Shown here: positions 1 through 48,118 of the stretch, one piece after another
How positions within the stretch are numbered: the first letter of the stretch is position 1
Layout of the letters: each line of letters starts with the position of its first letter
DNA from: Maribacter sedimenticola
Lineage (GTDB): Bacteria; Bacteroidota; Bacteroidia; Flavobacteriales; Flavobacteriaceae
Length of the DNA stretch: 64,000 bases
Direction of reading: 5' to 3'
NCBI RefSeq assembly: GCF_900188415.1
Contig: NZ_FZNV01000002.1
Span: 105,339 to 169,338 of the forward strand
Program-made: the position numbers and the translations under genes
The notes under the pieces: generated by a model
Databases searched by the model: none
What the model was told of the DNA's origin: nothing
The model's input: only the letters and a program-made list of their open reading frames with translations

Positions 1-3000
1 GATTTGCGAACTATACAGGATTGGATAGTAAAACGACAATTATCAGGTATACCCGGTGTTGTTGAAGTGAACACCTGGGGCGGATTTTTAAAGCAATATG
101 AAGTAGCCATCAATAGCCAAAAGTTAAACGCCATGAACATTACTGCTAGTGATGTATTTAGGGCGCTTGAAAATAACAATAGTGTTTCTGGTGGTGGGTA
201 TATAGAAAAAGTCAATCAAGCGTATTTTATTCGTGGTGAAGGCTTGGTTGCCTCTTTGGATGACATTAAAAATATAGTAGTAAAGAATGATGGTATTCCA
301 ATTTATATTAAAGACGTGGCCACAGTGGATTTTGGAAGTGCAGTACGTTTTGGAGCAATAACCGGCAACGGGGAAGGGGAAAAAGTTTTAGGACAGGTGA
401 TGATGCTTAAGGATGCAAATTCTAAAAAAGTGATAGAAGCGGTCAAGGAACGAGTGGAATTAATTTCAACTTCACTACCAAAGGGCGTTTACATTAATCC
501 GTTTTTGGAGCGTAGTGAGCTAATTTCAAAAACAACCTTTACGGTTACGGAAAATTTAATTTTAGGATGTCTGATCGTCATCTTTGTGGTGGTACTTTTA
601 TTGGGCAACTTTAGGTCTGGTTTAGTGGTTGCATCAGTAATTCCGTTGTGTTTGTTGTTCGCTTTATCGCTTATGTACATTTTCGGAGTAGATGCCAATT
701 TAATGAGTTTAGGAGCTATTGATTTTGGCATTATCATCGATGGGGCAGTAATTATTGTAGAATTCATAGCGTTCGAGATTACTAGGAAACAGCAAGAATT
801 AAATAGTCTGCAAAAGTTAGAAAAGCAGTATTTAAAAGATGAAATCACCTTTAATGGAGCTTCAAAAATGATGAATTCGGCCATTTTTGGACAATTGATC
901 ATTTTGATCGTATTTATACCCATATTGTCTTTGAGTGGTGTAGAAGGCAAAATGTTCAGGCCTATGGCATTGACATTTAGTTTTGCGCTGATCGGGGCAA
1001 TGATCTTATGTTTTACCTATGTACCGGTAGCGGCATCAATCTTTATAAAGCCCGCCAAGCAAACCGATAAGAACATCTCCGTTCGTTTAATGAATTGGTT
1101 GAACAAGAAATATGCACCTATAATTGAATGGGCATTAAATAGTAAAAAAATTGTTTTAGGTATTGCAACGGTATTTCTTTTAGGTGCAATAGTATTATAT
1201 AGTACCATGGGTAGTGAATTTGTACCTACATTGGATGAAGGGGATTTTGTGATCCAGCCCGTTTTAAAAACAGGGACTTCATTGAGCAAGACTGTTGAAA
1301 TTACTACCGAAATCGAGAAAATTCTATTGAAAAACTTTCCGGAGGTACAACAGGTTGTTACGAGAATAGGTGCCGCAGAAGTTCCTACCGATCCTATGTC
1401 AATGGAAGAAAGCGATGTTATCATTAAACTGGCTCCAAAAGGGGAATGGACCAGTGCAACCTCCAAAGATGAACTTGCGGACAAGTTCAAAAAAGCATTG
1501 GCCGTAATACCGGGTATGGAAGTAGAATTTACCCAACCTATAGAAATGCGTTTTAATGAGTTGATTACTGGAGTTAGGGCAGATATTGCCATAAAGATTT
1601 TTGGACCGGATTTAGATGTGCTGGCTCAAAAAGGGAGCGAGATAGGTAATTTGATAAAAACGGTAGAAGGTGCTGCAGATATAAGTGTAGAGAAAATAGC
1701 GGGTCTACCGGAAATGAGGGTTCATTACAACCGGGCCAAAATTGCCCGTTATGGATTGAACATTCAAGACTTGAATGATTTGGTATCCATGGGATTTGCA
1801 GGTAAAACTGCAGGCAGTGTATTTGAGGGAGAAAAGCGTTTTGATTTAGTGGTTCGCTTAGAAAAGGATAAGCGAAAAGATTTGGATGACCTTAAAAACC
1901 TATATGTAGATATTCCTACAGGTGGTAAAGTGCCTTTGACAGAACTGGCGGAAATCAGCTATAAAAAAGGGGCGGCAAAAATTTCTAGGGACGATACCAA
2001 ACGCCGAACAGTAGTTGGGGTTAATGTTCGTAACCGCGATCTACAATCTGTAGTGGACGATATTCAAACATTGATAATGGCGAACGTTAAACTACCAATA
2101 GGGTATACCATAACCTATGGCGGACAATTTGAGAATTTACAGAGCGCAAGAGACCGCCTTTTAATTGCTGTGCCTATTGCATTATTGCTCATTTTTGTGC
2201 TCCTGTATTTTGCATTTAAATCGGTAAAGGAAGCATTGATAATTTATTCCGCAATACCATTGGCGGCTGTAGGTGGCGTTGTACTGTTGTGGATGCGAGG
2301 TCTACCGTTCAGTATATCCGCAGGCGTGGGTTTTATAGCGCTGTTTGGTATAGCCGTACTCAATGGAATAGTTTTAATAGAGCATTTTAAGGAATTAAGG
2401 AAGCAGGCGTTCCCCAGTTTGGATGCGTTGATAAAACAAGGGACTACAGACCGTTTAAGAGCTGTATTGTTAACGGCCTCAGCTGCTGCCCTAGGGTTTT
2501 TGCCAATGGCAATATCTACCAATGCAGGGGCAGAAGTCCAAAGACCTTTGGCAACTGTAGTAATTGGGGGGCTTTTTACGGCCACCATTTTGACTTTGGT
2601 CGTTTTACCGGTGCTCTATTCAATCTTTGGTAAATATGAACATTCAAGAAAACCAATTCCTAAAACAACGCTGCATAATGGTATCGCTTTTATTGCACTG
2701 CTATTATCGGTTGGCGCATCGGCACAGAATACAAAAACTCAAGATCTTGACGGATTGATATCCTTGGCCCTTGAAAACAATATGGGTATAAAAGCCGGGC
2801 AGTCTAAAGTTGAGGTATCAAGGACCATGGTCAATAGTGCCTTTAATTTTGATAAGACCCATGTGTATTATGAGTATGATGAAAATAATTTAGCCATTAA
2901 CGGGGTGCCGTTAAAAGTATTTGGTGTGCAACAGGATTTTCGTTTTCCTACTGAATATTTCTTCCAAAAGAGGGTGAATAAAGTAAAAAACAATTTAGTA

Positions 3001-3861
3001 CTAACGGAATTCGATATTCAGCGTAAAGCTTTAAAAAGAGCTATGACAATTAGGTACTATGAATATCAGGTTGCACGTAAAAAAATAATGGTCTACAAAC
3101 GTTTAGATAGTCTGTATGCCAATTTCTCTTCTGTTGCCGCCAGAAAGTTTGAACTAGGTGAAACCAATTATTTGGAAAAGATTACAGCGGCTTCAAAACA
3201 ACGAAAAATTAACTTGGACTATGAACGGGCCGTTCAAGAATTGGCTACGGCATATAGTAATTTGTCCGGATTGGTTCAAGTTGAAGATAGCTTGATATTA
3301 TCACAGGAAATACATCTTAAAATGGATGTATTGAATGCGCCAATTGAAAATTCTCCGGAGATGGCCTTTTATGAGTTACAAATGCAACTAATGGCTGCAG
3401 AAAGTACTGTTGAAAAACAGCAATTGCTTCCAGATATCAGTTTAGCTTACTTTCAAGGGTCAAATTCAGCATTGAACGACAATCTCATAGGATATCAATT
3501 GGGGTTGAAAATTCCTTTACTGTTCAGTGGGCAGGCCGCCAAAATTAAAGCGTCCAAAATTGCTAAGGAACGGGCAGTGACAGAATCGGTTTCGTACAGG
3601 GTTCAACTGCAATTAAGACAAAACATCCTATTAAAGGAATTGGAGCAGATACAAAATTCTCTCAATTATTATGAAAATGAGGGAACGGTACTATCAGACG
3701 CAATATTAAGGACCGCCCAGATTAGTTTTAAAAATGGTGAAATTGATTTCTATCAATATATACAGAGTTTGGAAAGTGCCTATGATATTCAATTGGGCTA
3801 TTTGGAAAAATTAAAGGAGTATAACCAAACCGCCGCAAATATTAATTACCTAACCTTATAA
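1..3861 (+). CDS. CusA/CzcA-type heavy-metal RND efflux pump fused to a TolC-like outer-membrane factor (5' truncated)
   Basis: The reading frame is open from base 1, so the true start lies upstream; compared with CzcA/CusA pumps roughly the first 150 residues are missing. Residues 1 to about 880 are the RND inner-membrane pump: porter domain first, then hydrophobic helices (about 180-260, 290-350), the second periplasmic loop, and a second helix block (about 720-880). The remainder (about 910-1286) is rich in heptad-like helices and resembles a TolC/CusC-type outer-membrane factor. Between them, at nt 2671-2733, sits a segment that reads like a signal peptide, hydrophobic and ending ASA-Q. 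Such pump/outer-membrane-factor fusions are known in Flavobacteriia. The adaptor gene follows 10 nt downstream. Proton-driven metal-ion export (Cu/Ag or Co/Zn/Cd) is expected; the metal cannot be told from the sequence. Confidence 0.9.
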   Translation, partial: DLRTIQDWIVKRQLSGIPGVVEVNTWGGFLKQYEVAINSQKLNAMNITASDVFRALENNNSVSGGGYIEKVNQAYFIRGEGLVASLDDIKNIVVKNDGIPIYIKDVATVDFGSAVRFGAITGNGEGEKVLGQVMMLKDANSKKVIEAVKERVELISTSLPKGVYINPFLERSELISKTTFTVTENLILGCLIVIFVVVLLLGNFRSGLVVASVIPLCLLFALSLMYIFGVDANLMSLGAIDFGIIIDGAVIIVEFIAFEITRKQQELNSLQKLEKQYLKDEITFNGASKMMNSAIFGQLIILIVFIPILSLSGVEGKMFRPMALTFSFALIGAMILCFTYVPVAASIFIKPAKQTDKNISVRLMNWLNKKYAPIIEWALNSKKIVLGIATVFLLGAIVLYSTMGSEFVPTLDEGDFVIQPVLKTGTSLSKTVEITTEIEKILLKNFPEVQQVVTRIGAAEVPTDPMSMEESDVIIKLAPKGEWTSATSKDELADKFKKALAVIPGMEVEFTQPIEMRFNELITGVRADIAIKIFGPDLDVLAQKGSEIGNLIKTVEGAADISVEKIAGLPEMRVHYNRAKIARYGLNIQDLNDLVSMGFAGKTAGSVFEGEKRFDLVVRLEKDKRKDLDDLKNLYVDIPTGGKVPLTELAEISYKKGAAKISRDDTKRRTVVGVNVRNRDLQSVVDDIQTLIMANVKLPIGYTITYGGQFENLQSARDRLLIAVPIALLLIFVLLYFAFKSVKEALIIYSAIPLAAVGGVVLLWMRGLPFSISAGVGFIALFGIAVLNGIVLIEHFKELRKQAFPSLDALIKQGTTDRLRAVLLTASAAALGFLPMAISTNAGAEVQRPLATVVIGGLFTATILTLVVLPVLYSIFGKYEHSRKPIPKTTLHNGIAFIALLLSVGASAQNTKTQDLDGLISLALENNMGIKAGQSKVEVSRTMVNSAFNFDKTHVYYEYDENNLAINGVPLKVFGVQQDFRFPTEYFFQKRVNKVKNNLVLTEFDIQRKALKRAMTIRYYEYQVARKKIMVYKRLDSLYANFSSVAARKFELGETNYLEKITAASKQRKINLDYERAVQELATAYSNLSGLVQVEDSLILSQEIHLKMDVLNAPIENSPEMAFYELQMQLMAAESTVEKQQLLPDISLAYFQGSNSALNDNLIGYQLGLKIPLLFSGQAAKIKASKIAKERAVTESVSYRVQLQLRQNILLKELEQIQNSLNYYENEGTVLSDAILRTAQISFKNGEIDFYQYIQSLESAYDIQLGYLEKLKEYNQTAANINYLTL

Positions 3862-12506: not shown

Positions 12507-12512
12507 TTGTTT

Positions 12513-12644
12513 TTACTGTTTGTTTGAGTCCTTTGAAATTAAGGATTTTTTATATGCATCGGTCATAAAATTCCAATTAAATAGCGTTAAAATTAGCAAG
12601 GCGTATGGCATTGTAAGGGTTATGTTATAAGAGTTCGTATTCAT
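12513..12644 (-). CDS. Small hydrophobic ORF (43 aa) upstream of the oxidoreductase subunits
   Basis: An ATG-to-TAA ORF of 43 residues whose stop is 6 nt before the ATG of the 2Fe-2S subunit gene, so it is positioned as first gene of that operon. The protein has one hydrophobic stretch (ITLTMPYALLILTLFNW, about residues 8-24) and a charged C-terminal tail ending in KDSNKQ. I do not recognise the family. Its placement and single-helix character make a small membrane partner plausible, but the length is short enough that chance cannot be excluded. Confidence 0.42.
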   Translation of the reverse strand: MNTNSYNITLTMPYALLILTLFNWNFMTDAYKKSLISKDSNKQ

Positions 12645-12833
12645 GCTTGATTAAGGAGGAGATTTAAACAAAAAAGTATGCCTGTGCTTTATTTACAAAT
12701 TATTGCTTCTAAAGGTAAAAGAGCTATTTATAGATGGTATTGTGCTATTTGTTTGCGCAGGATGCGGGTATTTTTATGAAATACAAAGAGACTGTGCTCA
12801 TTGTTACTTGAACATGGTCAAAATCCGTAGCAT
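12645..12833. other. Divergent intergenic region
   Basis: The gene-poor stretch between the oxidoreductase operon and the diaminopropionate operon. It must contain promoters for both directions. A loose TTTG (12750 region) and TATTTTTA arrangement is present but too weak to call. No convincing ORF, hairpin or riboswitch was seen. Confidence 0.5.
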
Positions 12834-13838
12834 ATGATAACTCAAAATATAACACATAAACTATCAGAATCTATTATAGACACCATTGGAAGTACCCCTT
12901 TGGTCAATCTTGCAAATATGGTAGAAAAGAAAAAGTTTAATCTATATGGCAAATTAGAGGCTGCAAATCCGGGAGGAAGTATAAAGGACAGGACTTCGTT
13001 GTTTATTTTAAAGCAGGCGTTGGAAAATGGCAGGATAAAAAAGGGAGATACCATCGTGGAGTCCAGCTCCGGGAATATGGCCGTAGGCCTGGCCCAGGCA
13101 TGTTTGTATTATGGACTTCAGCTTGTGGTGGTGGTAGACCCAAAATTGAATTCACACACAGAAAAAATATTGAAAACCTATAACGCACGTATTGAAAGGG
13201 TAACCAAACCTTTGGATAATGGGGGGTTCTTGGGGGCAAGGTTAGAACGGGTACAATGGTTGTTGAATACCATACCCAATAGTTTTTGGACCAACCAATA
13301 TGGTAATCCGGATAATCCATTGACCCACCATTCCACTATGACGGAAATATTAGATGCACTGCATGGAAAGTTAGATTATCTATTTGTTGCCACAAGTACT
13401 TGTGGTACGCTTATGGGCTGTGCCGATTTTATATATGAGAATAATTTGAACACCAAAATCATTGCGGTAGACGCAGTTGGTAGTGTGTTGTTTGGCGGTC
13501 CACCGTTAAAACGACTTATTCCAGGTCATGGTGCAGGGGTGCCCTCCCAATTTTTGGATACCTCCAGAATACATGATTATATATATGTTGATGACGTTGA
13601 TTGCGCCAGGGGGTGTTGGTCAATATTAGAAAAAGAGGCTATACTTTGTGGTGGTTCATCTGGCGGTATGATAAGTGCTGTAAGAAAGTATGCGGATAAG
13701 ATTGGGGAAGACAGCAATTGCGCATTATTTCTTTGCGATCGCGGTGAACGGTATTTGGATACAATTTATAACAAAAAATGGCTGTTAAGGGAATTGCCGG
13801 AAAGTAAATCCGCATTTACTCCTTTAGGTGGATGGTAA
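12834..13838 (+). CDS. sbnA: SbnA-like PLP synthase (2,3-diaminopropionate biosynthesis)
   Basis: 334 residues of the cysteine-synthase fold family. The PLP lysine is in PGGSIKDRTS (Lys51) and the phosphate-binding loop is ESSSGNMAVGLA. The sequences GHGAGVPSQF and the ending ALFLCDRGERYL...W resemble SbnA (N-(2-amino-2-carboxyethyl)-L-glutamate synthase), which joins O-phospho-L-serine and L-glutamate, rather than ordinary CysK. It is first in a three-gene operon; its stop overlaps the next possible start codon. There is no sulfur-assimilation gene nearby. In staphyloferrin B synthesis the next enzyme is SbnB; here a flavoprotein takes that place. Confidence 0.85.
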   Translation: MITQNITHKLSESIIDTIGSTPLVNLANMVEKKKFNLYGKLEAANPGGSIKDRTSLFILKQALENGRIKKGDTIVESSSGNMAVGLAQACLYYGLQLVVVVDPKLNSHTEKILKTYNARIERVTKPLDNGGFLGARLERVQWLLNTIPNSFWTNQYGNPDNPLTHHSTMTEILDALHGKLDYLFVATSTCGTLMGCADFIYENNLNTKIIAVDAVGSVLFGGPPLKRLIPGHGAGVPSQFLDTSRIHDYIYVDDVDCARGCWSILEKEAILCGGSSGGMISAVRKYADKIGEDSNCALFLCDRGERYLDTIYNKKWLLRELPESKSAFTPLGGW

Positions 13839-15667
13839 GAGGAATGGATGAAATGAACGATGAACATATATACAAGATTGCAATTGTAGGTTTTGGACCT
13901 AAGGGCCTGTATGGTCTTGAGCGTCTTACGGCTTTTTTGAAAGATAGGGCAATCTCAAAAAATGTTGAGGTTCATATTTTCAATAGTACCTCCTTTTTTG
14001 GTGCAGGTGATGTGTATAGAACCGATCAGCCGCACTGCCTTATCATGAATTACGCCAATGGAAATATTAACGTGTGGCCCAAGCAATTACCGAAGCCGAT
14101 ACCAAACCATACTCCAGATTTTGTAGCATGGTTGAAGGAAAGAAATGTGAAGAAAAGTTCAACTACTGATTTTGCCCCTAGGGCAATGGTGGGTACATAT
14201 TTAAATGAGAGCTATCATAAACTAATAAGCCATTTACCTGTTAATGTTAACGTTGTACCTCATATAGGCTGGGTGGTAAATGTGGAAAATAGTAAACCGG
14301 GATTTGCCTTGTATTATACAAATGAAAAAGAACAAGAATCAACTATAGCGGTAGATCAAATCCTATTTACCACGGGGCACATTACATATAAATCTCACAT
14401 TGCGCCAAAACGGGCATCCGAGAACAATATTGGCTTTATATATCCTACCGATAAAAAACTTGTTGTGGTAGCGCCAGGAACGTCTGTTGCGATTAAGGGA
14501 ATGGGGCTAACTTGCATAGATGCCGTTTTAGCGTTAACGGAAGGTAGGGGAGGTAATTTTATTAAAAATGCAGATAATTTTTTTAACTACGTGGCATCTG
14601 GTCAGGAACCCAAACAAATGCATCTATTTTCAAGGTCTGGGTTGCCAATGGTTCCCAGGGATGGAACCCCGTTAGATGACAAACCCCTTCAATTTTTTAC
14701 CGAGAAAGCGCTTATCAAAATAAAAGCGAGAAGACCAATCAACTTTAATGAAACTCTTTTACCATTAATAAAGAAAGAATTCTATTGGGCATATTACCGT
14801 ACCTTATTTCAACAATATGGTTGGGAACTAAAGGGAGGTCTTGATTTTGAGAAGATAAGGGCGCAAGTAGTGCAATTTCATAAGCAATTTAGAAATGTGA
14901 CCTATTTTAGCTGGCAGCGTATTGTAAATCCTTTTGCGGAAAAAAGAAATATTACTAATGGGGAATTGAGGGAGTATATTCAATTTTTAATTCATCAAGC
15001 GGAATTGGGGGCTGATAAAAGTCCATTTATAGCGGCCGTAAGTACCTGGAGAAAAATAAGTCCGTTGTTTAATGAACTATACAGTTATGGTGGTTTGGAT
15101 GCAGCTTCGCATAAAGAATTTGACACCTATTATTTTGGGCTGTTCAACAGGCTGTCGTACGGACCGCCTATTGAGAACATGAAGAAAATATTGGCGCTTC
15201 ATACCAGTGGGTTGTTAAATTTTTCCTTTGCAAAATCGGTAACGGTGGTGAAAGGTAATGATGATGGGGAATGGTCGCTAATTGGGGAAAAGAGAAAAGA
15301 AACAAAGGTTCAATTTTTAATCAATGCTACCATTCCCAGGGCCGGACAGCAGGGATTTAAAAATGAACTTTATCAGAATTTAGAGAAAAACAAGTATATC
15401 ACTCCTTTTATAAATTCATCAAGTTCTACTTACCATCCCGGTTGTATCGCTTTAAATAAAAATGGAAATCCAGTAAATGAATATGGTGAGGTCAATAAGG
15501 CCTTTACGTTTTACGGAACACCTACAGAGGGTATAACGTATGACAATGATACCCTTTCACGTACCCGCAATGATTTTGCTACCATCTGGGCCAAATATAT
15601 TTGTAAGGATCTACAGAACAAAAATAGAAGAATAGCACATTATGAAAGAGAAGAACAAGTATTATAA
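13832..15667 (+). CDS. FAD/NAD(P)-binding flavoprotein of the diaminopropionate-type cluster
   Basis: 611 residues. The N-terminal Rossmann motif is IAIVGFGPKGLYGLERL, followed by FGAGDVYRTDQP, features of the FAD-NAD(P)-binding family (PF13454-like). A second glycine-containing strand (IKGMGLTCIDAVLAL, about residue 224) fits the rest of the dinucleotide fold. Three in-frame starts exist (13832, 13844, 13853); the shorter ones avoid overlap with sbnA. It overlaps the next gene by 26 nt. It might oxidise the SbnA product (secondary amine to imine) or act as an N-hydroxylase; both are inference. No signal peptide, so cytoplasmic. Confidence 0.78.
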   Translation: MVRGMDEMNDEHIYKIAIVGFGPKGLYGLERLTAFLKDRAISKNVEVHIFNSTSFFGAGDVYRTDQPHCLIMNYANGNINVWPKQLPKPIPNHTPDFVAWLKERNVKKSSTTDFAPRAMVGTYLNESYHKLISHLPVNVNVVPHIGWVVNVENSKPGFALYYTNEKEQESTIAVDQILFTTGHITYKSHIAPKRASENNIGFIYPTDKKLVVVAPGTSVAIKGMGLTCIDAVLALTEGRGGNFIKNADNFFNYVASGQEPKQMHLFSRSGLPMVPRDGTPLDDKPLQFFTEKALIKIKARRPINFNETLLPLIKKEFYWAYYRTLFQQYGWELKGGLDFEKIRAQVVQFHKQFRNVTYFSWQRIVNPFAEKRNITNGELREYIQFLIHQAELGADKSPFIAAVSTWRKISPLFNELYSYGGLDAASHKEFDTYYFGLFNRLSYGPPIENMKKILALHTSGLLNFSFAKSVTVVKGNDDGEWSLIGEKRKETKVQFLINATIPRAGQQGFKNELYQNLEKNKYITPFINSSSSTYHPGCIALNKNGNPVNEYGEVNKAFTFYGTPTEGITYDNDTLSRTRNDFATIWAKYICKDLQNKNRRIAHYEREEQVL

Positions 15668-17111
15668 AGGCAATCAAAAAAAAGGGTTGACCCCAATTAC
15701 GTCGCATTGGATGCACGAAATTTTCAATGACCAAGAAGTATTAAGAGGGGTGATGGAAAAGTACGGTTCTCCCATTAATGTTCACCATTTACCAACATTT
15801 AACGATAACTGTGCGCGTTATAAAGATTTATTTAAATCGTACGATTTAAAATATCAAATTTTCTATGCTAGAAAGGCCAATAAATCCAAGGGTTTGGTAA
15901 AACAAGCGTTTAGATCTGGCATAGGAGTGGATACCGCAAGTTTTAAAGAGTTGGAACAATCTTTGGCCCTAGGAGGAAATGGTAAAAATTTAGTATTGAC
16001 ATCGGCCATTAAGACTGAAGAACAAATAGCATTGGCCATAAATAATGAGGTTCCAATAATTTTAGATAACGAGGATGAATGTGTGTTAACGGAACAAGTA
16101 GCCAAAAAAATGGGTCTGCGGGCCAAAGTTGGTTTCCGTATAAGTGGATTTGAGGTCAAAGGTGAAAAGTTATATAGCAGGTTTGGTTTTGATATTGACC
16201 AAGTCACAAATTTTATTGCATCATATGTAGGTGATACAAAGACCTTTGAAAACTTAGATGTTACAGGACTTCATTTTCATTTGGACGGATATTCAACCTA
16301 CCAGCGTAGTATTGCACTATTAACTTGTATTAAAATTGGAAATGACTTAAAACGAAAAGGGTTTCCTGTTACATTTATTGATATGGGCGGGGGTATTCTC
16401 ATGAATTATTTAGAAGATGAACGCCAATGGATAGATTTTAATGATTCGCTACAAAAAGCCGTTACAACAGGAAACAATACCATTACCTTCAATGATAATG
16501 GGTTGGGGTATAGGTTAGAAGATGGTAAGCTACGTGGAAAATTAAATACCTATCCGTACTTCAATAAGGTTAACAAAAATTCATTTTTAAAAGAAGTTTT
16601 GGATTATGTAGATGCCGATTCTGGATTATCCTTGGCCGCATTACTTCGTAAAAACCATTTTGAAATTAGGATAGAACCCGGTCGTTCCTTATTGGACCAA
16701 GTAGGCGTGACCATTGCCAAAGTAGTCTATAGAAAACAAGATGCCAAAAAACAATGGTTGGTTGGCCTTGAGATGAATATGAGCCAGATGATGAGCTCAA
16801 GCGCAGATTTTCTATTGGATCCATATATAATTCATACCAGTGAAACTTCAGATAAGGAGAACGTTGATGTATTTTTTACTGGAGCTTATTGTTTAGAAAG
16901 GGATGTATTATTGAAGCGAAAAATAAGCTTAAGCAGGCTACCGGCCATTGGGGATTATGTCGCTTTTGTAAATACAGCTGGTTATATGATGCATTTTTTC
17001 GAAACGGAGGCACATTTATTTGATCTTTCCACTAATTTAATGCATACAGGTACAGATGAAAAGTTATCGTTTTTTCAATTTATTGATGATAATAAGATTG
17101 TATTGGAGTAA
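15642..17111 (+). CDS. Fold-type III PLP-dependent decarboxylase (Y4yA-like)
   Basis: 489 residues of the alanine racemase/diaminopimelate decarboxylase fold. The PLP lysine lies in FYARKANKS (Lys78); further motifs are GLHFHLDGYSTYQ, the phosphate-binding DMGGGILMN, IEPGRSLLDQ and the C-terminal GAYCLERDVL and FVNTAGYMM. The large insertion after GGG and the overall motif set resemble the Y4yA family, which occurs with SbnA-like genes, more than biosynthetic LysA. In the SbnA/SbnB/SbnH logic it would decarboxylate diaminopropionate or a conjugate of it. No lysine-pathway gene is adjacent. Confidence 0.8.
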   Translation: MKEKNKYYKGNQKKGLTPITSHWMHEIFNDQEVLRGVMEKYGSPINVHHLPTFNDNCARYKDLFKSYDLKYQIFYARKANKSKGLVKQAFRSGIGVDTASFKELEQSLALGGNGKNLVLTSAIKTEEQIALAINNEVPIILDNEDECVLTEQVAKKMGLRAKVGFRISGFEVKGEKLYSRFGFDIDQVTNFIASYVGDTKTFENLDVTGLHFHLDGYSTYQRSIALLTCIKIGNDLKRKGFPVTFIDMGGGILMNYLEDERQWIDFNDSLQKAVTTGNNTITFNDNGLGYRLEDGKLRGKLNTYPYFNKVNKNSFLKEVLDYVDADSGLSLAALLRKNHFEIRIEPGRSLLDQVGVTIAKVVYRKQDAKKQWLVGLEMNMSQMMSSSADFLLDPYIIHTSETSDKENVDVFFTGAYCLERDVLLKRKISLSRLPAIGDYVAFVNTAGYMMHFFETEAHLFDLSTNLMHTGTDEKLSFFQFIDDNKIVLE

Positions 17112-20383: not shown

Positions 20384-22096
20384 ATGGAAAGTCCATTAAA
20401 AATCAATAGTTTTCTTATTGCTTTGTTCCTGTTGGCTCTGATCCAGACTGTAAAAAGCCAGGAGACCAATGCCAATCTTGGGTCCAGTAGTACGTACCAC
20501 AATCAATTATATTTCAATAGGTTCTTTATTAACCCTACTTATTCCTTGGTACGAGAGAATAAATCGTATTTAAATATTCTTCATAGAAACCAATATGCCA
20601 CGTTCGATGATAATAGCCAAAATTATTTCTTAGGCTTCAGTAACAAGCTAAGTGATCAAACAGCCGTAGGTATAGGAGTATATAGCCAATGGGCCGGTGT
20701 GGTCCAGGAATTTGGTTTCAATGCCAACTATGCCACCTCTGTACGTTTGGCCGATAAATCCGTATTAACGTTCGGTACCAATATCACCTATTTTAATCAA
20801 GGGTTGGATAAAAATAGAATTGTGATCAGTGAAGAAGATCCAGAACTTTCAGAGGCCAGAAAGGAAAGTAAAATAGCTGTTCAACCAGGTATCAATCTAT
20901 CATTGGGCAAATTTGATTTTGGCCTGTACGCTGAGGATTTGTTGAAATATAACCAAACAACCAATGAGTTTTTAACAGAATTCTCCACAAAAAGTGTCAA
21001 GGCATCTATGCAGTATACCCATGACTTTAAAAATTCTAGAGGGCTATTTGAAAATGCCCGTTTTATGCCCATGGTGCAGGTAGGACAAAATTATGACAGT
21101 AGTCTGTATTACTTTGGTTCATTATTGTTGGATATGCCAAATTATGGATGGATTCAAACTACTTATGATCGGGATTATGGTATATCTGCAGGTCTTGGGT
21201 TTAATCTAAGCGAGAAAATGTCGTTGGGATATTTAATGGAAAAAGATATTGCAAAGCAAGACGCCAATTTGGGTTGGAACCATGAAATAACATTGGCCTA
21301 TACGTTTAAGGATGATGATTTGGGCATTACCGTTGCGGATAATAGTACAGATAATCAAATAGATAATATTGTGCGAAACTACGAAGAACAAATAGCCCAC
21401 CTTATAGAGGAACGGGACAATGCCAGAACATCTAGCAAAGCCAAAAATGTGGAAAAAGAATTGGAAACAAGCAATGCCAAGGAGATGTATAGTGCAAGTG
21501 CAACAGATTTGGCCTACCAGAATAAAATGGTCTTGGATGAGCTGATCATGAGGCAGGATTCTATTGAAGAAGTAAGAATTGCAGCTTTCGAAGAAAGGTT
21601 CAATCTTATTGTTAGGATGTTAAGAAATGATATAGACACCACCATCAAGAATTCGTTACAAGACTACAGTGCAGAGGAAACCACTGCTTATGTAGCCAAT
21701 GAAATACCTAAGAAAGATAAATCGGTAATTGCAAATACAAATAGCAGAAGGGCCAATTTCAAGGAACTGCCCGTAAAGATGATGGTAGATTCAGATGTTA
21801 TAGGAATGAATTCCGGATATTATGTAATTGCCAATGTATACAGCCAAACAAAATATTTAAATGCTTTTATGAAAGAGTTAAGGTCAAAAGGCTTGGATCC
21901 AAAACAATTTTATAATAAGGAAAACGGACTTTACTATGTATACTTGGCAGATTATGATTATAAGAATGAGGCCCAAATGGCCGCAAGTACAAATTTAAAC
22001 GGTAAGTATAATGATGAAAAATGGATAATGCAGGTGAATGAAACCACTGCTACAGTATCCAACACGTTTGAAGACGATGATATGAGTATTGAATAG
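20384..22096 (+). CDS. PorP/SprF family outer-membrane protein with C-terminal coiled coil and SPOR-like domain
   Basis: 570 residues. Signal peptide to about residue 25, then the PorP/SprF signature (YHNQLYFNRFFINPTYSLVR, later LGFSNKLSDQTAVGIGVYSQ) and a beta-barrel to about residue 310. Known PorP/SprF proteins hold type IX-secreted proteins at the outer membrane. The usual protein ends there at 300-350 residues. Here about 260 more residues follow: a helical, charged stretch (about 320-450) and a C-terminal module, GYYVIANVYSQTKYLNAFMKEL...GLYYVYLADYDYKNEA, with the SPOR pattern that binds denuded peptidoglycan. The extension may replace the OmpA anchor missing from the PD40 neighbour. 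Confidence 0.85.
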   Translation: MESPLKINSFLIALFLLALIQTVKSQETNANLGSSSTYHNQLYFNRFFINPTYSLVRENKSYLNILHRNQYATFDDNSQNYFLGFSNKLSDQTAVGIGVYSQWAGVVQEFGFNANYATSVRLADKSVLTFGTNITYFNQGLDKNRIVISEEDPELSEARKESKIAVQPGINLSLGKFDFGLYAEDLLKYNQTTNEFLTEFSTKSVKASMQYTHDFKNSRGLFENARFMPMVQVGQNYDSSLYYFGSLLLDMPNYGWIQTTYDRDYGISAGLGFNLSEKMSLGYLMEKDIAKQDANLGWNHEITLAYTFKDDDLGITVADNSTDNQIDNIVRNYEEQIAHLIEERDNARTSSKAKNVEKELETSNAKEMYSASATDLAYQNKMVLDELIMRQDSIEEVRIAAFEERFNLIVRMLRNDIDTTIKNSLQDYSAEETTAYVANEIPKKDKSVIANTNSRRANFKELPVKMMVDSDVIGMNSGYYVIANVYSQTKYLNAFMKELRSKGLDPKQFYNKENGLYYVYLADYDYKNEAQMAASTNLNGKYNDEKWIMQVNETTATVSNTFEDDDMSIE

Positions 22097-44746: not shown

Positions 44747-47700
44747 TTATCGTTTATAGTCAAATGAAATCCAGTCTGCATGGCAAATATTTTGAGTGGG
44801 GTCCTGTTCGTTCTTAAAAACAAGGACCAGATCGGCCTTTTCAACATTAGGGGATATAGGAATGGTATAATAAATGGTTTCTTCCTTACCATTATGTTCT
44901 AGATTTTGCTTGCCTATCAATGGTCCGTCCACACTATTTTCACGAACCTCCATAATACCTTTGAATTCTTGATCCATATTATAGAAGGCGGCAAACTTTA
45001 AATGCTCTAGGTCCTGAAGAGAAATAGCATTGAACTTTAGATATGCCCCATGCTGTAAAACACCCACAACCCGAGATTTGCTTGTACTCCAGGTACCCGT
45101 GCCCTCTTTGATTTCGTTGGCGTTTTCTGCTTCAATTTTTTGACTTTTAAAGATGACCTGTTCGCTAACGGTAAGTTCAGAGTTAGGTTGGGTTTTGTTG
45201 CCCTTGTCCCGGTAGGAAGCCATAAGTACATAATTACCTTCACCTGCCTTACCTATATGATCGTTGAATGTAATGGTTCCGGACAACGGCAATGATTTCT
45301 GGCCTGTCTCTTTTTGTGGTTTTAGGCTAAGGATGTAATCTACCATTTGCGTAACTTCCTCTACGGTAAGCTGGGGATGGGCGGACATAGCATTTTCTCC
45401 CCAGGCACCACCACCGCCTTTTATGATTTTAGAGACCAAATAACCGGTATCTTCCGCGCCATAACGCCTTGCAATGTCTATATAACTTGGACCGTTGACT
45501 TTTTCCTTAACGGCATGGCATGCTTTACAGTCAGAAGCTTCAATGGCCTTTTTGCCAATGGGTTCAAGATTACGCTGGTGCCCTAATGTGGCTTTAACGA
45601 AATCACGACCTTCCGGTATGTAGTCAAAAGTTACCTTTACATCTTCTGCGGCAATGGTTTGATCAGCAGTAGAGCCATCCTGTTTATCTTCTACGGTAAT
45701 GGTATAATCTATTTTTTTTCCATCCCAGTATATAGTGTCATTGTCGGCTATTTGTATGGTTAGGGTAGGGGCGTCGTTACCGACCAAAATTTTCGTGTTG
45801 GCAGACGTTGTGTTTCCTTTGCTGTCCGTTACCTTTAAGGTTACATTGTAAATTCCGTCTTCGGTAAAGGTAAACTCGGTGTTCATTTCTTGCGATTGAG
45901 GAGAATCTCCTGTAAAATACCAGTCATATGTAAGCGCATCATGGTCAAAATCTTTTGAGTTTTCTGCTGAGAAAGCAACGGTCAACGGTGCCGCACCTAC
46001 CGTTTTGTCGTGTGTAAATTTTGCGACCGGTTCCCTATTGCCTTTGATATACGATATGCTGCTTAATCTGGCATCCAGGTTTTGGGAGTTCCATTTTTGA
46101 CCATATTCCAGAATATACATATTGCCATTGGATGCAAAGATCATATCCATAGGATGGGAGAATTCCTCATTGGGCATAAAGGCATCGGCTTTAACATAAT
46201 TGAACTCCTCATCTAGAGTGATCACATAAATCCAATCTCTCATCCATTCATAAACAAACCATTTGTTTTCAAAGTAAGGAGGCCATAGATTTTCTGCGTT
46301 GGGCATATCCGCTTTATGAAATACGGGGCCTGCCATAGGGTTGATTCCTCCTTGGCCCATCCATGGAAATTCTTCTGATCTATAATAGGTCATAGGAATC
46401 ATGGATTTTTGTGCCGGAGGTAATTTCTGGATACCCGTATTATGTGGGGAATTATTGATAAGGTTATCTGGGTCAAATTTTGCACCTGACATATTGGTCG
46501 TAAAATCAAAATCATTGTATGCTTCATTGTACCCTCTAGTAAAAGGCCAGCCCCAAAAACCTGCATTTTTTGCTTGGTTGTATTCTCCCATTCCGCTAGG
46601 TCCCCTGTTGGGATCAGCCTTACCTGCATCTGGACCTATATCTCCCCAATATAGAATTCCAGTTTTGCTATCTATAGAATGTCTAAAAGGGTTTCTTAGT
46701 CCCATAGCATAGATTTCCGGTCTTGTTTTTTCCGTACCTACGGGAAACAGATTGCCTTTTGGGATAGTGTAGCTACCGTCTTCCTCTGGTTTTATCCGCA
46801 ATATTTTTCCCCTTAAGTCATTGGTATTGGCGGCAGAGCGCTGGGCATCGAACCCTGCACGGTCCAATCTTTCGTCCATAGGTGAGAATCCTGAAGATTC
46901 AAAAGGATTGGTATTATCGCCAAGGGCTATAAAAAGGGTTCCGTCAGGACCAAATTCCAAGGCGCCACCACTATGGCAACACTGCCTGTCCGTAGGAATT
47001 TCCAGTAGAATTTTTTCGGAATCAAGATCAAGGATGTCATCCTTTAAGGTAAAACGGGATACATGTTGTTTGGAAATATCCCCTTTGTTGGAATATAAAA
47101 GATATACCCAATTGTTCTCAAGGTAATTGGGGTCTACTGCCAGTCCCAATAATCCATCTTCGTTGCCATAGAACAAATTTAGCTGTGCAATGGTCTTTGT
47201 TTGTTCCGTTTCAAAATCAAAAAGCTTCAAAGCACCGTGGCGTTCAATGAACAAAATTCCCCTTCCGGGCAACTCATCGAGCTCCATGGGCTCGTTTAGG
47301 TTAAAATCCAATACGTTCTTAACAAAGCGGTCCTCTGGCGGCACTCTGTCCGTAGTGGCTCGGGAATAATCTAAGGTAGCATCGCCTACGGCATAGGTAA
47401 TACCCCCCAATAGATGCTTCAAAAATAACGGGTCCTCAAAAGTCTCATTGGTATGTCCCATCTCGGTATAGAAGGCCCTACCGCCATCATATGCGTGATA
47501 CCATGCTATGGGATGGCCCTCAGGATTTGTGCCGCCCTCATAACTGTTTTCGTCAATAGAAATCAGGACATTTATATTTGGATTGATATTTTTAAAATTG
47601 TACCACTCATCGCTCTTGGACCACGTTTCCCCTAAATGTTGTGTAGACGGGTGAGCATTGTTTTCAATATTCAATTTGGCTTCTTGTATGCGCGGATGGT

Positions 47701-48118
47701 CGTTAAAGACAGCACCCACAAGTTTATTGTACCATGGCCAATCATACTCGGTATCCGTAGCGGCATGGATACCAACAAAACCACCGCCAGCCTGGATGTA
47801 GCGTTCAAAATCTGCTTGTTGAACGTCATTTAGAATATCTCTAGTAGTATTGTTGAATATTACCGCAGCATAGTTTTTTAAGGAGTCCTCTACGATATAG
47901 TCGGCATCTTCGGTAGTAACGACCTTAAATCCATTTTCCGTGCCTAATTTTTGCAATGCAAGGTTTCCTGCCTCAATAGACCCGTGCCTAAAACCTTGGG
48001 TTTTGCTAAACACCAATATGGTATCATTTTTTTGCGAACAACTTTGTATGAAAAGAATGCAAAAACAAAGTGCTAACAGGAGATAAGGGGAACTAAGTGA
48101 AATATTAGGTCTGTACAT
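44747..48118 (-). CDS. Multidomain lipoprotein: ThuA, sugar/sorbosone dehydrogenase, PKD, cytochrome c, CBM
   Basis: 1123 residues, signal with lipobox FIQSC (Cys27). Domains in order: ThuA-like (about 32-245, HGSIEAGNLALQKLG to LLGGITYAVGD), a beta-propeller of the glucose/sorbosone (PQQ-type) dehydrogenase family (about 265-690; CCHSGGALEFGPDGTLFIALGDN), PKD (about 695-780), a class-I cytochrome c with CKACH at 864-868 and a candidate axial Met911 (ENAMSAHP), and a C-terminal beta-sandwich CBM6-like module (about 985-1123). A quinoprotein-like dehydrogenase with its own electron acceptor haem and a ThuA module suggests oxidation of a sugar or ketosugar. Whether PQQ is bound is not certain. 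Terminator follows. Confidence 0.88.
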   Translation of the reverse strand: MYRPNISLSSPYLLLALCFCILFIQSCSQKNDTILVFSKTQGFRHGSIEAGNLALQKLGTENGFKVVTTEDADYIVEDSLKNYAAVIFNNTTRDILNDVQQADFERYIQAGGGFVGIHAATDTEYDWPWYNKLVGAVFNDHPRIQEAKLNIENNAHPSTQHLGETWSKSDEWYNFKNINPNINVLISIDENSYEGGTNPEGHPIAWYHAYDGGRAFYTEMGHTNETFEDPLFLKHLLGGITYAVGDATLDYSRATTDRVPPEDRFVKNVLDFNLNEPMELDELPGRGILFIERHGALKLFDFETEQTKTIAQLNLFYGNEDGLLGLAVDPNYLENNWVYLLYSNKGDISKQHVSRFTLKDDILDLDSEKILLEIPTDRQCCHSGGALEFGPDGTLFIALGDNTNPFESSGFSPMDERLDRAGFDAQRSAANTNDLRGKILRIKPEEDGSYTIPKGNLFPVGTEKTRPEIYAMGLRNPFRHSIDSKTGILYWGDIGPDAGKADPNRGPSGMGEYNQAKNAGFWGWPFTRGYNEAYNDFDFTTNMSGAKFDPDNLINNSPHNTGIQKLPPAQKSMIPMTYYRSEEFPWMGQGGINPMAGPVFHKADMPNAENLWPPYFENKWFVYEWMRDWIYVITLDEEFNYVKADAFMPNEEFSHPMDMIFASNGNMYILEYGQKWNSQNLDARLSSISYIKGNREPVAKFTHDKTVGAAPLTVAFSAENSKDFDHDALTYDWYFTGDSPQSQEMNTEFTFTEDGIYNVTLKVTDSKGNTTSANTKILVGNDAPTLTIQIADNDTIYWDGKKIDYTITVEDKQDGSTADQTIAAEDVKVTFDYIPEGRDFVKATLGHQRNLEPIGKKAIEASDCKACHAVKEKVNGPSYIDIARRYGAEDTGYLVSKIIKGGGGAWGENAMSAHPQLTVEEVTQMVDYILSLKPQKETGQKSLPLSGTITFNDHIGKAGEGNYVLMASYRDKGNKTQPNSELTVSEQVIFKSQKIEAENANEIKEGTGTWSTSKSRVVGVLQHGAYLKFNAISLQDLEHLKFAAFYNMDQEFKGIMEVRENSVDGPLIGKQNLEHNGKEETIYYTIPISPNVEKADLVLVFKNEQDPTQNICHADWISFDYKR

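What the first reader, a model, noticed from the sequence alone, without database searches (positions are those of the whole stretch)
12834..17111. Orphan diaminopropionate-type operon: SbnA-like, flavoprotein, Y4yA-like decarboxylase
The first and third genes correspond to SbnA and the SbnH-type decarboxylation step, but the SbnB dehydrogenase is replaced by an FAD/NAD(P) protein, and no NIS or NRPS synthetase, exporter or TonB receptor is adjacent. The genes overlap by 7 and 26 nt, so they are one functional unit. A plausible route is phosphoserine + glutamate to ACEGA, oxidative cleavage by the flavoprotein to diaminopropionate, then decarboxylation to a diamine. The end product may be a novel metallophore, osmolyte or signal.
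Basis: partly seen in the sequence, partly recalled or inferred. Interest (0 to 1): 0.72.

Follow-up and report, generated by a model that had tools for sequence, protein, structure and literature searches.

The report
Stress-linked N-hydroxylated diamine biosynthesis operon
Three adjacent marine-bacterial genes, kept together in distant groups and often sitting among stress-defence genes, look like a short unstudied pathway that builds a small nitrogen-rich molecule from serine phosphate, adds oxygen to one of its nitrogens and removes carbon dioxide.

Summary
A Maribacter-type genome carries SbnA - flavoprotein - Y4yA-type PLP decarboxylase (12834-17111). The unit is real: of the 80 best loci fetched with the decarboxylase (80 kept of 255), 79 have the flavoprotein beside it and 78 the whole trio; in 9, SbnA and flavoprotein are one polypeptide. 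SbnA passes the SbnA cut-off, and its reported O-phosphoserine-binding triad is conserved in 79 of 79. The flavoprotein is no SbnB-type dehydrogenase. Its only significant PDB sequence match and clear best fold match is L-aspartate N-hydroxylase (Z 35.5; next family 18.9). The catalytic Asn is kept in 80 of 80 rows, but three of five aspartate-binding residues are lost. Trio flavoproteins form their own clade. Relatives stand beside SbnA AND SbnB, so it does not simply replace SbnB. The genome has no NIS synthetase and no SbnB over cut-off. Neighbourhoods are enriched in stress genes (46 of 80 loci; 0 of 20 control regions). Best reading: SbnA adduct, N-hydroxylation, decarboxylation, giving an N-oxygenated 2-aminoethylamine tied to stress. 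Product, step order and role are inferred, not shown.

The parts
12834..13838 (+). sbnA-type gene, 334 aa; predicted to join O-phospho-L-serine to an amine (L-glutamate in S. aureus SbnA)
   Evidence: TIGR03945 398.3 bits over cut-off 349.95; best PDB match S. aureus SbnA 5d84, E 2e-73; R136, Y156, S188 match SbnA R132, Y152, S185 in 79 of 79 trio SbnAs, while the genome's own CysK has R, F, G
13832..15667 (+). flavoprotein, 611 aa (true start possibly 13844 or 13853); predicted FAD/NADPH N-hydroxylating monooxygenase of the aspartate N-hydroxylase family, substrate not aspartate
   Evidence: PF13454; 8cp2 E 1.2e-30 over residues 15-570; AlphaFold model pLDDT 90.5 matches 8cp5 with Z 35.5, 559 residues, next family Z 18.9; N73 = catalytic Asn62, 80 of 80 rows
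15642..17111 (+). Y4yA-type fold-III PLP decarboxylase, 489 aa; predicted to remove the alpha-carboxylate of the serine-derived half
   Evidence: PF02784/PF00278; PLP-site residues K78, H213, G249-G251, E345-R348, C417, Y448 invariant in 33 aligned rows; model pLDDT 89.1, fold matches DapDC, N-citrylornithine decarboxylase and SbnH at Z 28-32
12507..12833 (.). intergenic region between the divergent molybdenum-oxidase gene and sbnA, where the operon promoter should lie
   Evidence: read; no motif shared with other trio loci was found

Best explanation
A self-contained three-enzyme pathway. [quoted passage not shown] (2) The flavoprotein, an FAD/NADPH N-hydroxylating monooxygenase, oxygenates a nitrogen of that adduct, most simply the new secondary amine, because the decarboxylase needs the alpha-amine free; if it oxidises twice, the nitrone would hydrolyse to 2-oxoglutarate and N3-hydroxy-diaminopropionate. 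(3) The Y4yA-type decarboxylase removes the carboxylate of the serine-derived half, leaving an N-oxygenated 2-aminoethylamine (N-hydroxy-N-(2-aminoethyl)glutamate or 2-(hydroxyamino)ethylamine). With no recurrent exporter and a neighbourhood of stress genes, the product is most likely made under stress and kept in or near the cell as a radical scavenger or metal binder. Shown by computation: gene identities, conservation as a unit, fusion, enzyme families, loss of part of the aspartate site, stress neighbourhood. Inferred: the substrate, the order of steps 2 and 3, the product and its role.
For: SbnA identity and OPS triad. Trio in 78 of 80 kept loci; SbnA-flavoprotein fusion in 9 loci, on two separate starred branches of the tree (L076/L077 and L112), which argues that the flavoprotein uses the SbnA product. 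Flavoprotein is nearest to aspartate N-hydroxylase in sequence and fold, catalytic Asn kept 80 of 80, but R276, N413 and R416 are lost (5 R, 0 N among the six commonest residues, 2 R of 80 rows) and R13 is K in 79 of 80. Rows next to nitronate monooxygenase, as expected of a nitro product, differ: L023 keeps R412, N413, R416. Flavoproteins of the same family stand beside SbnA and SbnB. Other Y4yA loci pair a PALP enzyme with the decarboxylase and a different third enzyme. Stress neighbourhood 46 of 80 against 0 of 20, split-half test 10.7 of 18 groups against 1.5 of 20.
Against: No metabolite or assay. The SbnA co-substrate is assumed from S. aureus. 34 of 80 loci have none of the eight stress families, and the Sulfitobacter plasmid neighbours are not stress genes. 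No shared upstream motif. Only 14 of 35 congeners keep the trio and one (G013) has only remnants, so it is dispensable. The flavoprotein evolves faster than its partners (69% against 86% among congeners; window 52%), which could mean relaxed or shifting specificity. The model segment 449-460 of the decarboxylase is poorly predicted, so its specificity cannot be read.
Confidence: 0.55

Rival explanations
1. One reading: the flavoprotein oxidatively cleaves ACEGA to diaminopropionate and 2-oxoglutarate (SbnB's job), and the decarboxylase makes ethylenediamine or a similar plain diamine.
For: SbnB is missing from the operon, from the genome over cut-off and from 20 of 20 other trio genomes over cut-off; a nitrone made by double N-oxidation would hydrolyse to the same keto acid.
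Against: The flavoprotein is an N-hydroxylase relative with the catalytic Asn, and in Deefgea and Rhizobium relatives of it stand next to SbnB over its cut-off, where cleavage is already provided for.
Confidence: 0.15
2. An aminopolycarboxylate metallophore pathway of the EDDS or rhizobactin kind, with the flavoprotein tailoring the ligand; release is by a transporter encoded elsewhere.
For: Other Y4yA decarboxylases stand with a PALP enzyme and an opine dehydrogenase plus IucA/IucC synthetase or with an ornithine-cyclodeaminase-type protein and a MATE exporter; rhizobactin is described as ethylenediamine coupled with alanine, lysine and malic acid (passage of PMC7676072).
Against: No NIS synthetase in the genome. 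No exporter, receptor or metal regulator family recurs at the trio; the one large family that looks like TonB receptors is in 3 groups at the trio but also in 4 of 20 control regions. PALP enzymes of the NGR234 and M. avium loci lack the OPS triad (alignment).
Confidence: 0.15
3. A nitro-compound, nitrite or 3-nitropropionate-type generator: the flavoprotein makes a nitro or nitroso compound as aspartate N-hydroxylases do.
For: Family membership; PMC10404684 reports three rounds of oxidation to nitrosuccinate and 3-nitropropionate (parts 1-3 of 6 read).
Against: Aspartate-binding residues R276, N413, R416 are not kept; none of the five tested neighbours in the window is a lyase or nitronate monooxygenase; SbnA and decarboxylase would have no role.
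Confidence: 0.06
4. A cysteate/taurine or cysteine side route: the SbnA homologue makes cysteate or cysteine and the decarboxylase makes taurine or a related amine.
For: SbnA, cysteine synthase and cysteate synthase share one fold family.
Against: Cysteate synthase model 169.5 bits against cut-off 600 and cysteine synthase models far below cut-off; a separate CysK over cut-off exists; the flavoprotein, sometimes fused, would be unexplained.
Confidence: 0.04

Closest known systems
[quoted passage not shown]
   Same: TIGR03945 over cut-off, OPS-binding triad conserved; works with a fold-III PLP decarboxylase as SbnH does
   Different: SbnB and the NIS synthetases are absent; linked or fused to an N-hydroxylase-type flavoprotein
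L-aspartate N-hydroxylase FzmM/CreE type (8CP2, 8CP5)
   Same: full-length sequence and fold match, catalytic Asn, FAD and NADPH domains
   Different: three of five aspartate-contacting residues lost, separate clade (100/98) with SbnA and Y4yA as partners
Y4yA of Sinorhizobium fredii NGR234 and its IucA/IucC cluster
   Same: homologous decarboxylase next to a PALP enzyme
   Different: 27-28% identity; third enzyme is an opine-type dehydrogenase, plus NIS synthetase and MFS exporter
EDDS (aes) genes of Amycolatopsis japonicum (recalled; only its reference entry was seen)
   Same: ethylenediamine bridge thought to come from a serine-derived, decarboxylated half (recalled)
   Different: no exporter here, flavoprotein instead of the partner enzymes; the paper itself was not available

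Membership tests
SbnA (ACEGA synthase) | TIGR03945 curated cut-off | tested here: met
   398.3 against 349.95 bits; Sulfitobacter 358.1 (over), Tsukamurella 343.6 (just under)
SbnA (ACEGA synthase) | R132/Y152/S185, reported as key for O-phosphoserine (passage of PMC12414870) | tested here: met
   R136, Y156, S188 in 79 of 79 trio SbnAs; own CysK R, F, G
SbnA (ACEGA synthase) | SbnB as partner | tested here: not met
   none in operon; none over TIGR03944 cut-off in the genome or in 20 of 20 trio genomes
SbnA (ACEGA synthase) | forms ACEGA from OPS and L-Glu | not testable with these tools
   needs enzyme assay
L-aspartate N-hydroxylase (nitrosuccinate synthase) | three-domain fold with helical substrate domain | tested here: met
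   8cp5 Z 35.5, rmsd 2.7, 559 residues; next family Z 18.9
L-aspartate N-hydroxylase (nitrosuccinate synthase) | catalytic Asn62 | tested here: met
   N73, 80 of 80 rows
L-aspartate N-hydroxylase (nitrosuccinate synthase) | aspartate-binding set R13, R276, N413, R416, R577 | tested here: not met
   K24 for R13 (79 of 80); R276, N413, R416 replaced. R577 seems kept by register with L023, but the 8CP2 sequence beyond residue 570 was not in the alignment
Diaminopimelate decarboxylase (LysA) | TIGR01048 cut-off | tested here: not met
   137.2 against 297.9 bits; separate LysA 375.4 bits in the genome
Y4yA-type PLP decarboxylase | homology to NGR234 Y4yA and PLP-site residues of fold III | tested here: met
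   27% identity over 86%; PLP-site residues invariant; Sulfitobacter orthologue is annotated 'Y4yA family'
NIS siderophore cluster (staphyloferrin B type) | IucA/IucC synthetase | tested here: not met
   PF04183: no match in the genome; control rings in E. coli and Haloferax
EDDS/rhizobactin-type aminopolycarboxylate cluster | OCD- or opine-type dehydrogenase and exporter next to the PALP/Y4yA pair | tested here: not met
   none among the five tested neighbours in the window; none recurrent at 80 loci among families in at least 3 groups

The most novel reading that the evidence does not exclude
A stress-response small molecule of a new class: a three-enzyme, export-free pathway, horizontally spread over Bacteroidota, Balneolota, Chloroflexota, Alphaproteobacteria and (with a split flavoprotein) Actinomycetota, makes an N-hydroxylated ethylenediamine that protects cells as a hydroxylamine/nitroxide-type radical scavenger or an iron/copper mask, alongside HPII catalase, NHEJ and hibernation factors.
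Probability: 0.3. Interest if true: 0.85.

Novelty: new variant of a known kind. Interest (0 to 1): 0.6.

Why it matters
If right, the SbnA/decarboxylase logic known from metallophores has been rewired with an N-hydroxylase into a separate metabolic unit that many marine bacteria keep among their stress genes. It would add a new small molecule to bacterial stress physiology, a new substrate class for aspartate-N-hydroxylase-like flavoenzymes, and a natural SbnA-monooxygenase fusion as a tool. All steps are testable with three soluble enzymes.

Tried and rejected
Shared promoter motif upstream of the trio: dyad count over 35 genus-level groups found at most 5 groups per dyad, mostly A/T runs; nothing kept. 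Consensus promoter/terminator scan of the window gave no more sites than shuffles (16 found, 20.5 expected; 3 terminators, 4.2 expected).

Siderophore reading by whole-genome search: PF04183 and SbnB searches negative over cut-off. LysA and CysK readings rejected. Cysteate synthase rejected. Decarboxylase specificity from fold: DapDC, ODC, N-citrylornithine decarboxylase and SbnH are within a few Z units, so it says only the fold.

Literature: library searches turned up no paper whose listing describes this trio; only four papers hold 'Y4yA' and I saw them as listings only. One search was too broad to be informative. Spohn 2016/2018 (EDDS, EDHA) and the original SbnA structure paper were not available; they are cited from reference entries or a passage, or recalled.

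Limits: one search kept the best 80 of 255 confirmed loci, so the 79/80 and 78/80 figures describe the Y4yA clade nearest the window, not all Y4yA. Some of the 80 loci are cut at contig ends. The eight stress families were picked after seeing them recur; the split-half test is the check on that. The 20 control regions come from 9 genomes. In the residue check the second CysK-like row was a wrong short frame (123 aa) and is not used.
Full report
OBSERVATION. The window lies in a 4.27-Mb genome. Its nearest named relatives are Maribacter species. Three ORFs stand head to tail at 12834-13838, 13832-15667 and 15642-17111. They are an SbnA-type PLP enzyme, a NAD_binding_9 flavoprotein and a fold-III PLP decarboxylase. 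The overlaps are 7 and 26 nt as reported; the first depends on which ATG starts the flavoprotein, since homology begins near residue 8.

ONE UNIT. A scan of 84,980 species genomes with the decarboxylase alignment found 255 relatives, of which the tool kept the best 80. In these, 79 of 80 have the flavoprotein next door, 69 a separate SbnA and 9 an SbnA-flavoprotein fusion, i.e. 78 of 80 the whole trio. The exceptions are L097, cut at a contig end, and L123, a lone decarboxylase in Mesonia algae, a species whose other locus, L068, has the trio. In the fusions the SbnA part covers about residues 10-350 and the flavoprotein part the rest. Fused rows L076/L077 (Flavobacteriaceae) and L112 (Balneolota) lie on different well-supported branches, L112 with unfused relatives, so fusion probably happened at least twice. 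The trio also sits on Sulfitobacter plasmids: 5 Sulfitobacter records match, 4 with the whole stretch in one place and one in two places (gene order read). It is also on a Tsukamurella plasmid, where the flavoprotein lies in two pieces in different frames.

WITHIN THE GENUS. Full-length flavoprotein matches occur in 14 of 35 same-genus genomes. In all 14 the trio stands at the same place between the molybdenum-oxidase genes and the VOC/hibernation-factor/DUF2383 genes; L036 has three extra genes upstream. One genome, G013, keeps only fragments (L042), and G032 has a distant relative of the flavoprotein without the trio (L041). Among congeners, without the window, the flavoprotein averages 69% identity while SbnA and the decarboxylase average 86%; the window's flavoprotein is 52% identical to the others, its SbnA 81% and its decarboxylase 75%. 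So the module is accessory, and its middle enzyme evolves fast. In a sample of the phylum, 9 of 296 genomes (the window's own included), one in each of 9 of 140 genera, match the flavoprotein profile at 1e-40; whether each has the trio was not checked.

ENZYME 1. The SbnA homologue scores 398.3 bits on the SbnA equivalog (cut-off 349.95) and stays below the curated cut-offs of the cysteine, cystathionine and cysteate synthase models listed. The closest solved structure is S. aureus SbnA. A passage of PMC12414870 names Arg132, Tyr152 and Ser185 as the residues for selective O-phosphoserine binding. They are conserved in 79 of 79 trio SbnAs; the genome's own CysK has R, F, G there. A CysK over its cut-off exists elsewhere.

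ENZYME 2. The only significant PDB sequence match is 8cp2, E 1.2e-30; the other two hits are at E 0.47 and 0.93. The predicted structure (pLDDT 90.5) matches 8cp5 and 8cp2 at Z 35.5 and 35.2 over about 559 residues, the next entry at Z 18.9 (a re-alignment of Foldseek's hits). PMC10404684 (parts 1-3 of 6 read) describes this enzyme as an L-aspartate N-hydroxylase that oxidises three times. It names Asn62 as a catalytic residue and Arg13, Arg276, Arg416, Arg577 and Asn413 as aspartate contacts. In 80 trio rows Asn62 is kept in 80, Arg13 is Lys in 79, and Arg276, Asn413 and Arg416 are mostly replaced; Arg412 is mostly Ser. Position 571, Val in 8CP2, is Asp in at least 95% of trio rows if the register with L023 holds. 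By contrast the Parageobacillus and Staphylococcus relatives keep R412, N413 and R416, and the Parageobacillus one sits by a nitronate monooxygenase gene. The trio flavoproteins form one group (100/98) apart from aspartate N-hydroxylase and from the flavoproteins next to SbnA-SbnB (the Sulfitobacter row is long, 2.86). It is therefore an N-hydroxylase-type flavoenzyme with another substrate.

WHY IT IS NOT JUST A NEW SbnB. In Deefgea the gene order is SbnA, SbnB, flavoprotein, ThrH (SbnB 415.9 bits). In Rhizobium sp. CB3171 it is SbnA, SbnB (377.3), flavoprotein, an ATP-grasp-like protein with weak similarity to D-cycloserine synthetase (113.7 bits, cut-off 360) and an EamA transporter. There SbnB already frees Dap, so the flavoprotein presumably oxygenates it. 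In the trio genomes no SbnB passes its cut-off: 0 of 20, although 13 of 20 have weak matches. The flavoprotein must then act on the SbnA adduct itself, or cleave it by way of an N-oxidised intermediate.

ENZYME 3. The decarboxylase keeps the fold-III PLP-site residues and is not LysA: 137 bits against cut-off 298, while a separate LysA scores 375. Its relatives give a hint. In NGR234 and Bradyrhizobium the decarboxylase stands with a PALP enzyme, an opine-type dehydrogenase and an IucA/IucC synthetase; on M. avium pMAH135 with a PALP enzyme, an ornithine-cyclodeaminase-type protein and a MATE exporter. The shared core is a PALP enzyme plus decarboxylase, which fits an ethylenediamine bridge; the third enzyme varies. 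Rhizobactin, described as containing an ethylenediamine group (passage of PMC7676072), is a likely product type for such clusters; that link is my inference. The PALP enzymes of the NGR234 and M. avium loci lack the OPS triad (alignment).

NEIGHBOURHOOD. Families recurring around the trio include an SDR, YetF (DUF421), HPII catalase, DUF2383, response regulators, topoisomerase IB, MscS, DUF892, Ku and LigD. Any of eight of these (YetF, catalase, Topo IB, DUF892, LigD, Ku, DUF2383, MscS) occurs in 46 of 80 trio loci. By the first locus of each genus-level group it is 23 of 36, against 0 of 20 control regions of equal length from 9 of the same genomes (Fisher p 7e-7). Because the families were picked after the fact, I split the groups: families found in one half recur in 10.7 of 18 groups of the other half on average, against 1.5 of 20 control regions (200 splits). 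Against this: 34 of 80 loci have none, the Sulfitobacter neighbours are not of this kind, and no shared upstream motif was found. That these are general-stress genes is recalled knowledge. No exporter or metal regulator family recurs; the one large family that looks like TonB receptors is no more common than in controls.

READING. OPS plus an amino acid gives an adduct (SbnA); a nitrogen of it, probably the secondary amine, is hydroxylated (flavoprotein); the serine-derived carboxylate is lost (decarboxylase). The decarboxylase needs a free alpha-amine, which is why the secondary amine is the likelier target. The product would be an N-oxygenated 2-aminoethylamine, kept inside or near the cell under stress. 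A passage of PMC11705231 mentions N3-hydroxy-diaminopropionate as a hypothesised intermediate of alanosine made by a different flavoenzyme type, so such chemistry has been proposed before. I put 0.55 on this reading, 0.15 each on plain cleavage to Dap and on an EDDS/rhizobactin-like metallophore, and small odds on nitro-compound and cysteate routes.

NOVELTY. The enzyme families are known; the combination, its conservation as a unit, the fusion and the stress setting were not described in any listing returned by library searches. I call it a new variant of a known kind.

Noticed in passing
L045:5969-12288 (Rhizobium sp. CB3171 plasmid): SbnA-SbnB-flavoprotein-ATP-grasp (weakly D-cycloserine-synthetase-like)-EamA cluster; could make a cyclised N-hydroxy-Dap, for example an isoxazolidinone.
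   Followed up: partly
L044:3457-7894 (Deefgea piscis plasmid): SbnA-SbnB-flavoprotein-ThrH cluster between IS elements; Asn413 of aspartate N-hydroxylase is Asp in this flavoprotein, which would suit an amine in place of the aspartate carboxylate.
   Followed up: partly
L024:1587-14098 (Staphylococcus epidermidis plasmid pML7049-5): Biosynthetic-looking cluster with LeuA/LeuC/LeuD-like proteins, TauD dioxygenase, cupin, MFS, an aspartate-N-hydroxylase-like flavoprotein and an extra GAPDH gene that could be a resistant target copy.
   Followed up: no
L021:9037-15870 (Pantoea agglomerans plasmid): Cluster with a PEP-binding (PEP-mutase-like) protein, flavoprotein, alkaline-phosphatase-family protein and aminotransferase, possibly a phosphonate pathway.
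   Followed up: no
L023:9986-15430 and L040:6192-8934: Relatives of the flavoprotein next to nitronate monooxygenase genes, fitting nitro-compound production with self-protection.
   Followed up: partly
L048:6259-11750 (Mycobacterium avium plasmid pMAH135): PALP enzyme, ornithine-cyclodeaminase-type protein, Y4yA decarboxylase and MATE exporter near copper genes; resembles an EDDS-like metallophore cluster.
   Followed up: no
L042 (same-genus genome G013): The trio in decay: decarboxylase in three fragments, a 54-residue flavoprotein remnant, no SbnA among the ORFs, with flanking genes intact.
   Followed up: partly
window 4-3861: RND efflux pump (AcrB family) and outer-membrane efflux domain in one 1285-aa ORF.
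   Followed up: no
window 44747-48118: 1123-aa ORF combining ThuA, glucose/sorbosone dehydrogenase, PKD and cytochrome c domains.
   Followed up: no
window 20384-22096: PorP/SprF protein with a weak C-terminal SPOR domain.
   Followed up: no
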